NCBI RefSeq assembly: GCF_944324745.1
Contig: NZ_CALUXO010000093.1
Location: forward strand, 1-58,960
Origin: an uncultured Thomasclavelia sp.
GTDB lineage: Bacteria > Bacillota_I > Bacilli_A > Erysipelotrichales > Coprobacillaceae
Reading direction: 5' to 3'
Length of the DNA: 58,960 nt
Shown here one piece after another: positions 3,148-12,482 of this stretch (the first letter of the stretch is position 1; each line of letters opens with the position of its first letter). Position numbers and translations under genes: made by a program. The notes beneath the pieces were generated by a model, which saw only the letters and a program-made list of their open reading frames with translations, ran no database searches and was not told where the DNA came from.

Positions 3148-4257
3148 TTAATAAGTTCTTACTGGTAAGACTAATTGAATCAAATCATCTTTTTCATAAT
3201 CTTTGATGATAAATGGTTTCATTGGTCCCGTAAACAATAATTTTACTTTAGGTTCACTAAATGATCTTAAAGCATCAGTTGCATATTTAGAACTAAAAGA
3301 AATACTCAAAGATTCACCTTTGAAGAAAGAACGATCAAGTTTTTCTTCTACAGAACCAATTTCTTGCATATAAGATGAAAGAATTACTTCTTCATCTGAC
3401 ATATCAAGTTTAATGATGTTGTTTTGTTCATTATTTAATAAAGATACACGATCAATAGCATTTAATAAATAATGAGCATCAATATCTAATTCATAATCAT
3501 AGCTTTCAGGTATTAAGCGATTAGTATCTGGGAAAGTACCATCAATTAATCTAGTTTGAATAATGTTATTATCAAAAACATATAATACTTTACGATCAGA
3601 AACATAGATTTCAATTTCTTCGTCTTTTTCAATGATCTTAGAAATTTCATCTAATGATTTTTGAGGAATCGTAATATTAAATGTTATTGAGTTATTTAAT
3701 GGAGCTACTTTTTTAGCTAAACGATAACTATCAGTAGCTGTAGCTTCTAATTGTCCATTACCAGCTTTAAAATTGATTCCAGTCAAGATTGGTTTATGTT
3801 CTTTTTCGCTAGCAGCAAATTTAGTTTGGGTAATTAAATCTTTTAAGATAAAAGAACTGATAAAAAAGTTAGACCCACTTTTAGATAAATCGATACGAGG
3901 ATAATCTAAAATGTCATTACCATTTAAATCAAATTTAGATGTTCCCCCAGAAATTCTAGTTAATGAGTGTTCTAAAGTTTCAAAAGTAATGTCATCGTTA
4001 TCAATTTTACGAACAATGTCTAAGATAAAGCGAGAGTTTAAAACAACTCCTCCAGTTTCATCAATATTTAAATCTTCATTTTTATCAATTTTAGTTTGAA
4101 TCGTAATATCAGAATCACTACCAGTTAAGATTAAACAATCTGATTGTAAATCAAACTTAATTCCTGTTAAAACAGGTAAAGGGGTTCTGATTGAAACAGC
4201 TTTTGTTGTTTTATTAAGTGCGTTTAATAATTTAAGTCGATTAATTGTAAATTTCAT
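3148..4257 (-). CDS. dnaN: DNA polymerase III beta subunit (sliding clamp)
   Basis: Ring-shaped processivity clamp that tethers DNA polymerase III and many repair proteins. At 369 aa it has full family length, with three clamp domains in sequence. It starts MKFTINRLKLLNALNKTTKA and ends in the conserved LVLPVRTY, where the C-terminal segment forms part of the protein-binding cleft. AGGAGGTCATT precedes the ATG at 4257 on the minus strand. It lies 129 bases downstream of dnaA with a DnaA box between them, probably cotranscribed with dnaA. Confidence 0.97.
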   Translation of the reverse strand: MKFTINRLKLLNALNKTTKAVSIRTPLPVLTGIKFDLQSDCLILTGSDSDITIQTKIDKNEDLNIDETGGVVLNSRFILDIVRKIDNDDITFETLEHSLTRISGGTSKFDLNGNDILDYPRIDLSKSGSNFFISSFILKDLITQTKFAASEKEHKPILTGINFKAGNGQLEATATDSYRLAKKVAPLNNSITFNITIPQKSLDEISKIIEKDEEIEIYVSDRKVLYVFDNNIIQTRLIDGTFPDTNRLIPESYDYELDIDAHYLLNAIDRVSLLNNEQNNIIKLDMSDEEVILSSYMQEIGSVEEKLDRSFFKGESLSISFSSKYATDALRSFSEPKVKLLFTGPMKPFIIKDYEKDDLIQLVLPVRTY

Positions 4258-4328
4258 AATGACCTCCTTGAGTTTATTATATATATTTATTTTAAATTAT
4301 TCTACTAATATTATTATATTGTGAATTT

Positions 4329-4337
4329 TGTGAATAA
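4329..4337 (-). promoter_or_regulatory. DnaA box TTATTCACA in the dnaA-dnaN gap
   Basis: TGTGAATAA on the plus strand reads TTATTCACA on the minus strand and fits TTATNCACA. It lies between dnaA and dnaN. Together with the boxes at 3095, 5818 and 6006 it brackets dnaA, as in bipartite Bacillota origins. Confidence 0.6.
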
Positions 4338-4386
4338 ACACGAAAACCTTGAATAATTCAGTTATTTTTTTGTGAGTTTAATGTGT

Positions 4387-5733
4387 CTAATTTATGCCCA
4401 ATTTGTGCTTTAATTTATCAATAGCTAATTTATAATCAGGATCTTTTTTGATTTTAGTATCTACTCTGGCACAAGCTTTCATTACAGTTGAGTGATCACG
4501 GTTACTAAACGTAGTTCCAATTTCCGAAAAAGTAATATCCAATAATTCTCGCATTAAATACATGCAGATTTCTCTTGGTGTTGTTAGTTTACGCGTTTTA
4601 TTTTTAGAAATAAGCTGACTGATGGTTAAATAATAAAATTCTGCCGTTGTTTTTAAGATCAATTCTTTAGTTAAAGCGGTTTTTGGATTTTGTACCACTT
4701 TATCATCTTTAAGTGATTCTAAAGCAAAAGCCATATCAATAGTATTTGTATGATTCATAATACTGCAGAAAAATAGTCTTTTTAAAGCTCCTTCAAGATT
4801 ACGAACATCTTTACAATAATGGTTAGCCATAAAGTCAACAACATCATCTTGGATAATTAAGGATGGATTATCAAGATTTTCAATCTTTTTTTCTAAGATA
4901 GCTCTAGCAGTTTCAAATTCTGGTGGATCAATACCAAAGCTTAATCCTGAATTAAAACGGCTGATCAAACGTGATTCAATTCCTTGTAATTCTTCTGGCA
5001 TTTTATCACTAGTGATGACGATTTGTTTATTATTATTTATTAATTCATTAAAGATGTGAAAAAAGATTTCACTACTTTTTTCTTTATTGAATAAAAATTG
5101 AATATCATCAATTAATAAAATGTCTAATTGTTTATATTTTAGATAAACATCATTGCTATTTCTACCCTTCATTGCACCAACAACTTCGTCAACAAAGTCT
5201 TTACTAGTAATATAGCGAATTTTTAACGATGGATTGGTTTCTTTGGCGTAGTTTCCAATGGCATTTAATAGATGGGTCTTTCCTAACCCGGGGTTACTAT
5301 AAATAAATAACGGGTTGAAATTAGAACCTGGATTACTCGATACTAGTAAAGCAGCGTTTTGTGCCATACGATTGGAACTTCCGACTACAAAGTTATCAAA
5401 AGTGAAGGTTTTATTTAAATTATCTTTAAAAAGTTCTTCATTTTGGACGGAAATGGTTTTTTGAAATTCTTCATCAGTGATGATTTCAACTACGACAGGT
5501 GAAGCTAGCATGCCAGAGAGGATATCTTCAATATCTTTCTGATTATTTTTTATTGTTTCTACATTAAAAGCATAAGGTGTTGTAATAATTACCTTATTGT
5601 CACTAATTGAGGCGATATTAGAATAACGAAAAACTGAATCCATGATGATTTTTTCAATTTTTCGTTCATCAGGCAAATCTTTTTTCTCTAATGTATCAAG
5701 ACATAATTGCCAAATTTTACTATTATCATTCAT
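4387..5733 (-). CDS. dnaA: Chromosomal replication initiator protein DnaA
   Basis: Initiator AAA+ ATPase that binds DnaA boxes and opens oriC. It has 448 aa, normal for the family. The N-terminal domain I starts IWQLCLDTLEKKDL. The AAA+ core has Walker A NPGLGKTHLL near residue 145 and Walker B ILLIDDIQF near 205. The C-terminal DNA-binding domain has the DHSTVMKA signature near residue 409. A GGAGGTAAAAAA ribosome site precedes ATG 5733. It is transcribed away from rpmH, leaving the origin region between them. Confidence 0.98.
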   Translation of the reverse strand: MNDNSKIWQLCLDTLEKKDLPDERKIEKIIMDSVFRYSNIASISDNKVIITTPYAFNVETIKNNQKDIEDILSGMLASPVVVEIITDEEFQKTISVQNEELFKDNLNKTFTFDNFVVGSSNRMAQNAALLVSSNPGSNFNPLFIYSNPGLGKTHLLNAIGNYAKETNPSLKIRYITSKDFVDEVVGAMKGRNSNDVYLKYKQLDILLIDDIQFLFNKEKSSEIFFHIFNELINNNKQIVITSDKMPEELQGIESRLISRFNSGLSFGIDPPEFETARAILEKKIENLDNPSLIIQDDVVDFMANHYCKDVRNLEGALKRLFFCSIMNHTNTIDMAFALESLKDDKVVQNPKTALTKELILKTTAEFYYLTISQLISKNKTRKLTTPREICMYLMRELLDITFSEIGTTFSNRDHSTVMKACARVDTKIKKDPDYKLAIDKLKHKLGIN

Positions 5734-10108: not shown

Positions 10109-10116
10109 AATACAAT
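10109..10116 (+). promoter_or_regulatory. AATACAAT element before the LytTR regulator gene
   Basis: AATACAAT followed by TAA occurs 154 bases before the response regulator start. The same 8-mer occurs twice, 21 bases apart, before the small peptide gene at 12346. A single copy here could give weaker autoregulation by the LytTR protein. Confidence 0.35.
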
Positions 10117-10262
10117 TAATACACATATTGTGTCATATATAAATTATCTTATACACATTAGTAGACAAAATATCTTTATTCTTATAAAATTTGTTATTAT
10201 TTTTGATGATAGAAAATACTGATAAAATCAATAAAATTTTATATAAAGAAGGAGAGCGGATA

Positions 10263-10961
10263 ATGGAATTTAATATTGCAATTTGTGACGATGAGAAAGA
10301 TTATGTTAAAGAAATAATTGATTATCTAGATAAAATATCGTGGAAAAGAAACAATAAATTTATCTATCATACATTTTATAGTGGTAAGGATTTATTAGAT
10401 AGTAATCAAACTTTTGATGTAATTATTTTAGATATTAAAATGGATAATGTTTCAGGAGTACAAGTTAAAGATATTTTCTATCATAGAAACAACAATTCTC
10501 GAATAATATTTTTAACTAATTATGATGAGTATATGAAATATTCATTTGGTCGTAATGTCTATGGTTATATTAATAAAGCTCAAATTGAACAGATCGAACA
10601 ACCAATGGCAATTATCTTTAAAGAATTATTAGAAAATCGCACAGTAGTAATTCATGGTAAAGTAATTAATTTATATAAAGTATATTATGTTAGAGCCGAT
10701 GGACCTTATATCAATATTCATTATGAAAATGATTATGATATTTATCGGATGACTCTAAGTGATTTTGAAAAGAAAATAATGAATTCTAATTATATTAGAA
10801 CTCATAAATCATATCTAGTTAACATGCGCTATATCAAAGAAATAAAGAATCGAGAACTAATTTTAGATAATGATGCAATCATCAGCATATCACATAATAA
10901 AAAGAATGAAGTCATCAAAACTTATCATAATTATTTAATGGAGAATATTACATATGATTAA
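10263..10961 (+). CDS. LytTR response regulator (AgrA-like)
   Basis: DNA-binding response regulator of 232 aa. The receiver domain (1-125) starts MEFNIAICDDE with the acidic pocket, has the phospho-acceptor Asp in VIILDIKMDN, and carries YGYINKA in place of the usual lysine loop. The LytTR DNA-binding domain (about 135-230) has KVYYVRADGPYINIHY and NSNYIRTHKSYLVNMRYIKEI. The ATG at 10263 is chosen because AAGGAGAGCGGATA precedes it; an upstream in-frame start at 10191 lacks a ribosome site. It overlaps the kinase gene by 8 bases. It likely binds the paired AATACAAT repeats at 12260. Confidence 0.93.
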   Translation: MEFNIAICDDEKDYVKEIIDYLDKISWKRNNKFIYHTFYSGKDLLDSNQTFDVIILDIKMDNVSGVQVKDIFYHRNNNSRIIFLTNYDEYMKYSFGRNVYGYINKAQIEQIEQPMAIIFKELLENRTVVIHGKVINLYKVYYVRADGPYINIHYENDYDIYRMTLSDFEKKIMNSNYIRTHKSYLVNMRYIKEIKNRELILDNDAIISISHNKKNEVIKTYHNYLMENITYD

Positions 10962-12255
10962 TTGGCTAATCTTATTAGTGAAACAATTCATTGATATTAT
11001 CAAATATTTATTAATTGCTGATGCTTTATTCGATTTAAAGTGGAATAAATATCAAAAGATTAAAGAAATAATAATTTTATCAGTATTAATAATCATCACC
11101 TATCTCCTACTATTCAACTATATTATTGATATTTGGATAGATTTAAACTTAGTTATCTGTCTAATTTTTCTAGTCGTAGTACTTAGAAATAAACCATCTA
11201 TAACATTCAAATATATAGTGGTAAGTACGCTAATAGTTACAGTAATCGAACAAATTGTAGATTTATTTTTAGGCTATAATATTATAAATGTTAATAATAA
11301 TGAATTTGTGATTTCAAACTTATTAAGATTTTTTATTATTTTAATAATTTATTTGTTAAAGCATTTAATTGATGTAGTTAGTAAAAATTCTTTTCAAATA
11401 AGCTTACCTAGTTATATATACATGAATATTATATTTTCATTTAGTGCAACAATTTTTCCATTAATTATTGTTCAAACATATAGCAATCTTATAAGAAATT
11501 CTTTAAGCAATTTAATAATAGTTGTTGCATATCTTAATATACTAATTTCAATAATATCGATGATTTTCTTTATAAAAAATAAAAATGAAAAAGATAAGTA
11601 TTATTTAGAAAGCTTAATCAAAGATCAGACTATAAAATTGCAGGAAGATTATTATCAAAAACTAATTGCTAACTACACTAATATTCGTAGTTTTAAACAT
11701 GATGTTAAAGCCCATCATCATATTTTAAATAATTTATTAGAAAATCATAGTTATGAGGAGGCTAAACTATACTTAAAGAAGATGTCTGATAAAATATCAA
11801 GCAGTGATTTGTATAACACAAATAACATTTACATTTCTACTATTTTAAATTCGTTTGATCAGATGTTTAAAGAAAATAATATTAAATTTACTTTCACCTA
11901 TAATGTAAATAATTCTCTCAATATGGATAATATGGATATTTGTTCCCTATTCCACAATTTAATCATCAATACAATCGAAGCCAATATAAAAATCACTTCT
12001 AATCGTTTTATTTCTTTAACTATTACCAGTATCAAAAATAATCTTTTAATTAAACTAGTCAACCCAATTATAAATGAAGATGAGCTAATTTATTTAATGG
12101 AAATGAAAAGTTCAAAATCTGATTCAGAAAATCATGGCGTTGGTTTAAAGATTATCAATGAAATTATTAATAAATATAATGGTAAAAATGACTATCAAAT
12201 AGAAAATAATTCGTTAATTAATACAATTATTTTATTAAATGTCGTAAACTATTGA
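10954..12255 (+). CDS. GHKL sensor histidine kinase (AgrC-like)
   Basis: Membrane histidine kinase of 433 aa. About six transmembrane segments fill residues 1-210. A cytoplasmic linker leads to the H-box SFKHDVKAHHHILNNLL with the phospho-His near residue 249. The C-terminal GHKL ATPase has an N-box in SLFHNLIINTIEANIKI and a G-box in SENHGVGLKIINEI. This architecture is that of AgrC/ComD-type peptide receptors. It is coupled to the LytTR gene by an 8-base overlap. No agrB or agrD lies nearby; instead an 18-codon gene follows. Confidence 0.92.
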   Translation: MINWLILLVKQFIDIIKYLLIADALFDLKWNKYQKIKEIIILSVLIIITYLLLFNYIIDIWIDLNLVICLIFLVVVLRNKPSITFKYIVVSTLIVTVIEQIVDLFLGYNIINVNNNEFVISNLLRFFIILIIYLLKHLIDVVSKNSFQISLPSYIYMNIIFSFSATIFPLIIVQTYSNLIRNSLSNLIIVVAYLNILISIISMIFFIKNKNEKDKYYLESLIKDQTIKLQEDYYQKLIANYTNIRSFKHDVKAHHHILNNLLENHSYEEAKLYLKKMSDKISSSDLYNTNNIYISTILNSFDQMFKENNIKFTFTYNVNNSLNMDNMDICSLFHNLIINTIEANIKITSNRFISLTITSIKNNLLIKLVNPIINEDELIYLMEMKSSKSDSENHGVGLKIINEIINKYNGKNDYQIENNSLINTIILLNVVNY

Positions 12256-12259
12256 TTTA

Positions 12260-12288
12260 AATACAATTTTAAAGAGTATAAATACAAT
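12260..12288 (+). promoter_or_regulatory. Paired AATACAAT direct repeats, likely LytTR operator
   Basis: AATACAAT starts at 12260 and again at 12281, exactly 21 bases or two helical turns apart; the flanks (TTTTAA and AATTAA) are similar. Tandem half-sites on one helix face are the known binding mode of AgrA/ComE-type LytTR proteins. The second repeat ends about 22 bases before a TAATAT/TATTAT -10-like stretch (12310-12318), placing it over the -35 region. Confidence 0.5.
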
Positions 12289-12345
12289 AATTAATTAAAT
12301 CTAAAATTTAATATTATATTTTTCTCGAACAGGAGGAAATATAAT

Positions 12346-12402
12346 ATGACTACTTATGGTTTATACGAATGGTTATTAAAATGGTTAGGTGGATGGAGCT
12401 AG
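12346..12402 (+). CDS. 18-residue Trp-rich peptide after LytTR/GHKL system
   Basis: A short reading frame, MTTYGLYEWLLKWLGGWS, with AGGAGG at 12331-12336 nine bases before the ATG. Three tryptophans, five leucines or isoleucine-like residues and a single Lys/Glu pair give an amphipathic, membrane-active looking peptide without a leader or cysteine. It has its own putative LytTR operator upstream (12260) and a terminator downstream (12445). It could be the signal sensed by the kinase, a leaderless bacteriocin, or a phenol-soluble-modulin-like peptide. These are inferences; I know of no exact relative. Confidence 0.65.
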   Translation: MTTYGLYEWLLKWLGGWS

Positions 12403-12444
12403 AAGGAGAAAAAATATAAAAATATCTTCATTGTATATTTATTT

Positions 12445-12477
12445 AAAAAAAGGTATGATGCAATGTCATATCTTTTT
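12445..12477. terminator. Bidirectional terminator
   Basis: AAAAAAGGTATGA and TCATATCTTTTTT pair (one G-U) around TGCAATG. T-runs on both strands let it end both the peptide transcript and the convergent oxidoreductase transcript. Confidence 0.75.
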
Positions 12478-12482
12478 TGTCT

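What the first reader, a model, noticed from the sequence alone, without database searches (positions are those of the whole stretch)
10109..12477. Agr-like LytTR/GHKL system with an 18-residue Trp-rich peptide in place of AgrD
A LytTR regulator and six-helix GHKL kinase are followed by a tiny gene with a perfect AGGAGG and its own terminator, encoding MTTYGLYEWLLKWLGGWS. The 8-mer AATACAAT occurs twice, exactly 21 bases apart, before this gene and once before the regulator gene. Tandem half-sites two turns apart are the known LytTR binding pattern. There is no agrB or cysteine, so it would not be a cyclic thiolactone. The peptide may be a leaderless signal or an amphipathic bacteriocin under quorum control.
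Basis: partly seen in the sequence, partly recalled or inferred. Interest (0 to 1): 0.75.

Follow-up and report, generated by a model that had tools for sequence, protein, structure and literature searches.

The report
Kinase–regulator pair driving a micro-peptide gene
Gut bacteria related to Erysipelatoclostridium carry a sensor–regulator gene pair whose only conserved recognisable target is a neighbouring gene for a 15-19 amino-acid peptide without export leader or ring-making residues, which looks like a stripped-down version of the agr cell-to-cell signalling system.

Summary
Behind a LytTR regulator and GHKL kinase lies a convincing 18-codon gene with AGGAGG, a terminator and a 10-bp direct repeat at 21 bp in its promoter. 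Peptide and repeat are conserved in two congeners (kinases 62% and 51% identical). Four more genomes have a Cys-free 15-17-aa ORF in the same slot, three with a different perfect repeat at 20-21 bp. Among 131 kinases, repeats go with the tiny ORF (6/7 versus 5/124, p=5e-7). The full repeat pair marks one intergenic site per genome, the tiny gene, in G028, G023, G015 and the window genome (which also has a shorter, unconserved pair before an agr operon). The regulator thus drives the peptide gene, not its own operon; the lone AATACAAT at 10109 is chance. In related loci this slot holds AgrD-like peptides under the same promoter layout, but this peptide is no AgrD: no AgrB nearby, no leader or tail, and most homologues lack Cys and Ser. 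Best reading: an agr-derived, AgrB-independent cassette making a leaderless membrane peptide that is probably also the kinase's ligand. Translation, secretion and ligand role are untested; helical amphipathicity is not significant.

The parts
10263..10961 (+). LytTR response regulator (receiver + LytTR DNA-binding domain)
   Evidence: PF00072 E=1e-9, PF04397 E=8e-17
10954..12255 (+). GHKL sensor kinase, AgrC/ComD-like: 6-7 predicted membrane helices, FKHD phospho-acceptor box, HATPase_c_5
   Evidence: PF14501 E=1e-17; invariant H249/D250 in the six-sequence alignment; AF2 model at low confidence
12258..12267 (+). LytTR-type direct repeat, half-site 1 (TAAATACAAT)
   Evidence: conserved in G002 and G005
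12279..12288 (+). LytTR-type direct repeat, half-site 2 (TAAATACAAT), 21 bp start to start
   Evidence: only one full-length copy of the pair in the genome
12312..12317 (+). putative -10 element TATTAT, 23 bp after half-site 2; same hexamer 26-27 bp after the repeat in G002 and G005
   Evidence: inferred promoter
12331..12336 (+). Shine-Dalgarno AGGAGG
12346..12402 (+). micro-peptide gene, 18 aa MTTYGLYEWLLKWLGGWS, leaderless, no Cys
12446..12478 (+). A/T-rich intrinsic terminator hairpin with T-run; makes the peptide gene its own transcription unit of roughly 155 nt (inferred)

Best explanation
This is a compact agr-type cassette in which the AgrD/AgrB half has been replaced by a ready-made linear micro-peptide. 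The kinase, when stimulated, phosphorylates the LytTR regulator. The regulator binds the 20-21-bp-spaced repeat and switches on a short transcript that encodes only the 15-19-residue peptide; in G028 and G023 transporter genes follow with no clear terminator found between. The peptide is made without leader or ring, partitions to the membrane interface (aromatic-rich, short), and most likely acts there both as the product of the system and as the ligand of its own kinase, giving a positive feedback loop. Shown here by sequence: domain content, conserved ORF and Shine-Dalgarno site, conserved repeat/-10/start layout, near-uniqueness of the site, absence of AgrB nearby and of ring-forming residues in most homologues, and AgrD-like peptides in the same slot of related loci. 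Inferred: DNA binding, translation, membrane action, secretion and the ligand role.
For: Peptide conserved behind orthologous kinases: G002 MMMTYGFYEWLIKWLGGGH and G005 VQLYSFFEWIIEWLYGKK. Versus G002 the ORF is 75% and the repeat region 90% identical, while the spacer is 55% and downstream DNA 43%. More distant members: G028 MYYRLWVLIMKLLKG, G023 MLLFYNFWKIWRYGKI, G015 MVYTLLREIWRLIYGKR and probably G104 MSPVYLKTLLRLLGLL. A peptide profile run on 315 genomes of the order found only such loci below E=0.02; none of the weaker hits fetched was beside a GHKL gene. The repeat at 20-22 bp is present in 6/7 tiny-peptide loci versus 5/124 other kinases, Fisher p=5e-7, with a different half-site in different lineages. 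Experimentally supported LytTR repeats are separated by 11-13 bp and lie just upstream of the -35 (PMC6193735). The pair is the only intergenic match in G028, G023 and G015; in the window genome it is the only full-length copy. AgrD slot: G019 has kinase, 21-bp repeat ACGTTCGTTGC, then a Cys-containing AgrD-like 37-mer. Most known peptide-pheromone receptors are HPK10 kinases with 5-8 membrane segments (PMC4873836).
Against: No transcript, ribosome footprint or peptide has been seen. If the peptide were only a pheromone, the loop would lack another conserved output in the window genome. No exporter is next to the gene in the window, G002 or G005. Sensor and catalytic domains diverge about equally between window and G002 (61% vs 62%) and only mildly unequally further out, so there is no strong sign of receptor-ligand diversification. 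The kinases of G023 and G015 are not in the clade of the others, so common ancestry of all these peptides is not shown. G104 has no repeat. G015 and G023 entered the set as top kinase hits, so the seven loci are not a random sample.
Confidence: 0.48

Rival explanations
1. Effector only: the peptide is a leaderless membrane-active (bacteriocin- or modulin-like) product, and the kinase senses something else, such as envelope stress or a competitor's molecule.
For: The tiny gene is almost the only recognisable target, so it must be the output. The nearest kinases without a tiny ORF (G012, G027) sit beside lactococcin-972-like clusters. Tiny genes in G028 and G104 lie next to C39-peptidase ABC exporters and in G023 next to ABC-transporter genes.
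Against: The peptide always sits in the slot where AgrD sits in related loci. Helical amphipathicity is not significant. There is no immunity or export gene beside it in the window, G002 or G005.
Confidence: 0.27
2. The peptide is a small membrane feedback modulator of the kinase (MgrB-like role): made when the system is on, it binds the kinase inside the same membrane and tunes it.
For: Strict adjacency, near single-target regulation, short hydrophobic aromatic peptide without secretion signal.
Against: A system whose main product only regulates itself would have no clear output; the hydrophobic stretch is too short for a classical transmembrane helix.
Confidence: 0.12
3. The tiny ORF is a Trp-rich regulatory leader peptide or the coding part of a small regulatory RNA (RNAIII-like), the peptide itself being unimportant.
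For: Short transcript with terminator, three Trp codons, transporter genes downstream in G028 and G104.
Against: No co-directional gene directly follows in the window, G002 or G005. Conservation is concentrated in the ORF and the repeat, not downstream. There is no Rfam match, and the transcript outside the terminator folds no better than shuffles.
Confidence: 0.06
4. An AgrD relative processed in trans by an AgrB encoded elsewhere in the genome (C48 or C4).
For: The genome encodes AgrB at two other loci.
Against: 18 residues leave no room for an N-terminal leader and C-terminal tail; the G002, G028, G023 and G015 peptides contain neither Cys nor Ser.
Confidence: 0.03

Closest known systems
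Staphylococcal-type agr (AgrBDCA) quorum sensing
   Same: GHKL/HPK10-type multi-helix kinase, LytTR response regulator with tandem repeats two turns apart, small peptide gene at the kinase; AgrD-like peptides occupy the same slot in related loci
   Different: No AgrB nearby, no leader or tail, no Cys/Ser for a ring in most members; repeats precede only the peptide gene and not the regulator operon; gene order regulator-kinase-peptide
ComCDE / Blp / Pln double-glycine pheromone systems
   Same: Linear peptide, HPK10 kinase, LytTR regulator, occasional neighbouring C39 ABC exporter (G028, G104)
   Different: The peptide has no double-glycine leader and is the size of a mature pheromone as encoded
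Agr-controlled leaderless modulin-type peptides and delta-toxin (named only)
   Same: Short leaderless peptide directly behind a LytTR-type promoter
   Different: 15-19 aa, Trp/Tyr-rich, encoded beside the kinase; no significant helical moment; no activity known
LytTR regulatory systems (HdrRM, BrsRM)
   Same: LytTR regulator and direct repeats separated by 11-13 bp upstream of the promoter (PMC6193735)
   Different: Here a receiver-domain regulator and a kinase instead of a membrane inhibitor; no repeat before its own operon

Membership tests
agr (AgrBDCA) | GHKL/HPK10 polytopic kinase plus LytTR response regulator | tested here: met
   PF14501, PF00072, PF04397
agr (AgrBDCA) | AgrB endopeptidase encoded at the locus | tested here: not met
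   No AgrB ORF near the window pair; AgrB only elsewhere in the genome
agr (AgrBDCA) | AgrD precursor with leader, Cys/Ser ring residue and C-terminal tail | tested here: not met
   18 aa; no Cys; G002, G028, G023, G015 lack Cys and Ser; no NCBIfam hit
agr (AgrBDCA) | Regulator binds tandem repeats at a promoter of the peptide gene | tested here: inconclusive
   Repeat and promoter layout present and conserved; binding not testable here
Double-glycine pheromone systems | Pheromone precursor with GG leader | tested here: not met
   No leader in any of the seven peptides
Double-glycine pheromone systems | C39-peptidase ABC exporter at the locus | tested here: not met
   Absent at the window locus; present only in G028 and G104
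Leaderless bacteriocin / modulin-like peptides | Amphipathic helix | tested here: inconclusive
   Hydrophobic moment vs shuffles, combined p = 0.064
Leaderless bacteriocin / modulin-like peptides | Membrane or antimicrobial activity | not testable with these tools
   Needs synthetic peptide
LytTR regulatory systems (LRS) | LytTR regulator without receiver domain, with membrane inhibitor | tested here: not met
   Receiver domain present, kinase partner

The most novel reading that the evidence does not exclude
A new class of peptide signalling in a gut bacterial family: AgrC/AgrA-type pairs whose ligand is encoded directly as a mature, leaderless, unmodified 15-19-residue peptide, needing neither AgrB nor a GG-leader exporter, in an almost closed loop where the peptide gene is the main direct target.
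Probability: 0.4. Interest if true: 0.75.

Novelty: new variant of a known kind. Interest (0 to 1): 0.6.

Why it matters
If the peptide is the kinase ligand, agr-type signalling can run without AgrB or a leader/exporter, with ligands that annotation pipelines miss (ORFs under 20 aa) and that can be ordered as plain linear peptides and tested at once. It also gives a simple rule for finding such ligands: a 20-21-bp repeat behind an orphan GHKL gene followed by a strong Shine-Dalgarno site.

Tried and rejected
Repeat before the regulator gene: chance level. Trp-attenuator leader: no co-directional gene directly downstream in the window, G002 or G005. RNAIII-like RNA: no Rfam hit, weak fold. AgrD processed in trans: no room and no ring residue in most homologues. 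Regulon with several targets: only the tiny gene in G028, G023 and G015. In the window genome two further sites were seen: C48 before an agr-like operon, a shorter AATACAA pair, not repeated in the G002 orthologue; and a 2-mismatch A/T-rich site at C19, taken as chance. Peptide profile in the wider phylum: two hits were known loci; none of the new loci had a GHKL gene detected. Kinase in viral contigs: none; in plasmids: only partial distant hits. Known NCBIfam family for the peptides: none. Literature searches for AgrB-less, leaderless GHKL/LytTR peptides found nothing matching; the library is open-access papers only.

Full report
What was checked. The window belongs to a genome (G000, 2.76 Mb) of the same genus as Erysipelatoclostridium sp. 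An173: genome G002 has the contig length and kinase position of An173 contig NZ_NFKR01000003.1. The repeat is better than stated: a 10-mer, TAAATACAAT, at 12258 and 12279. The isolated AATACAAT before the regulator is expected by chance.

Is the tiny ORF a gene? Yes, by comparison. The kinase has relatives in G002 (62%), G005 (51%) and G028 (36%). Directly behind them lie MMMTYGFYEWLIKWLGGGH, VQLYSFFEWIIEWLYGKK and MYYRLWVLIMKLLKG, each after a strong Shine-Dalgarno site. Two further kinases, G023 and G015, have MLLFYNFWKIWRYGKI and MVYTLLREIWRLIYGKR, and G104 has MSPVYLKTLLRLLGLL. Between window and G002 the ORF aligns without gaps at 75% and the repeat region at 90%, while the spacer is 55% and the DNA after the ORF 43%. 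A profile of the peptides run over 315 genomes of the order gave hits below E=0.02 only at these loci; the weaker hits that were fetched were not next to a GHKL gene.

Is the repeat meaningful? In all seven loci except G104 a perfect 10-11-bp direct repeat at 20-21 bp ends 54-73 nt before the start codon, with different half-sites in different lineages: (A)TAAATACAAT, TAAAATACAA, TTCGGAACAAA, TGACGTTCAT, ACCGTTCGTC. Shuffling each upstream region gives such a repeat in 0-0.4% of cases. Over 131 distinct kinases, a repeat of at least 9 bp near the kinase end occurs in 6 of 7 tiny-peptide loci and 5 of 124 others. The best -10-like hexamer (TATTAT) lies 23-27 bp after the repeat in the three congeners; candidates in the others lie 22-33 bp after it. 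Published LytTR repeats are separated by 11-13 bp and lie a few to about ten bp upstream of the -35 (PMC6193735); AgrA binds two direct repeats upstream of P2/P3 (PMC4227749). DNA binding itself is not tested here.

What does the regulator control? No repeat pair was found before the regulator genes. Genome-wide pattern searches (up to three mismatches in G028, two in G023 and G015) found a single intergenic site, always the tiny gene; all other near-matches lay inside reading frames. In G000 the full 10-mer pair occurs once. A shorter pair, AATACAA at 20 bp, occurs before an agr-like operon on C48, but the G002 orthologue lacks it, and one 2-mismatch A/T-rich site lies on C19. So the conserved output is the peptide. 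In the window, G002 and G005 the next gene is convergent, and the tiny gene has its own terminator in the window, G005 and G104. In G028 the tiny ORF is followed by a C39-peptidase ABC exporter and an HlyD protein, and in G023 by an ABC ATPase and a protein with a sub-threshold FtsX match.

How it relates to agr. Among the surveyed kinases, several have AgrD-like peptides in the same slot. The clearest is G019: kinase, repeat ACGTTCGTTGC at 21 bp, then MVLIKKVARIMIERVKETNYNCSPAGFYKPKKLFKKD. The micro-peptide therefore occupies the AgrD position, but it fails the AgrD tests: no AgrB nearby, too short for leader and tail, and no Cys or Ser in G002, G028, G023 and G015. The kinases of window, G002, G005 and G028 form one clade with the lactococcin-972-linked kinases of G012 and G027 nearest and G104 next by path length; those of G023 and G015 fall elsewhere, on long branches. 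The arrangement may have arisen more than once.

Mechanism. Most characterised peptide-pheromone receptors are HPK10 kinases with 5-8 membrane segments (PMC4873836), and the model of this kinase shows six helices plus a seventh running into the dimerisation helix, at low confidence. Together with the AgrD slot this favours a peptide ligand. The near single-target regulon argues that the peptide is also the product that matters. I therefore favour a dual role, with effector-only as the main rival. The peptides' helical moment is not significant, so 'amphipathic' should not be leaned on. No strong accelerated divergence of the sensor half was seen.

Limits. Nothing here shows transcription, translation, export or binding. 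The kinase sample was drawn by similarity to the window kinase and is centred on one order; in samples of the wider phylum no further case was recognised.

Noticed in passing
L048 (G000:C48) 1976-2080 minus; L155 (G002:C48): An agr-like operon with AgrB whose AgrD-like peptide MTKEKVCKMVKKIAKKYENNYSPGGAYKPRRKTK lacks Cys in the core where G019 and G005 relatives read NCSP; conserved in G002. May be a Ser lactone or a different chemistry.
   Followed up: partly
G000:C48:30775-30801 (L048, L046): An AATACAA pair at 20 bp upstream of that agr-like operon resembles the window's half-site; possible cross-talk, but absent in the G002 orthologue.
   Followed up: partly
L029 2640-2850 (G019:C11): Cys-containing AgrD-like peptide under a perfect 21-bp LytTR-type repeat with no AgrB recognised in the fetched stretch.
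   Followed up: partly
L055 (G027) 3346-4775: Transposase-like genes inserted between a GHKL kinase and a lactococcin-972-type bacteriocin cluster.
   Followed up: no
L053 (G028) 3326-3697 minus: 123-aa ORF beginning MEMTMNLPRNYVEIEEEEMMYLDGG, looks like a double-glycine bacteriocin precursor in the operon behind the tiny peptide.
   Followed up: no
L177 (G239) and L095 (G236): AgrD-like peptides without Cys (VTWFGEYEPKKP; SLSAWGLYKPQP) in loci with AgrB.
   Followed up: no
G000:C5:4006-4062 (L039-L045): Pentanucleotide AATAC tandem array in the window's genome.
   Followed up: no
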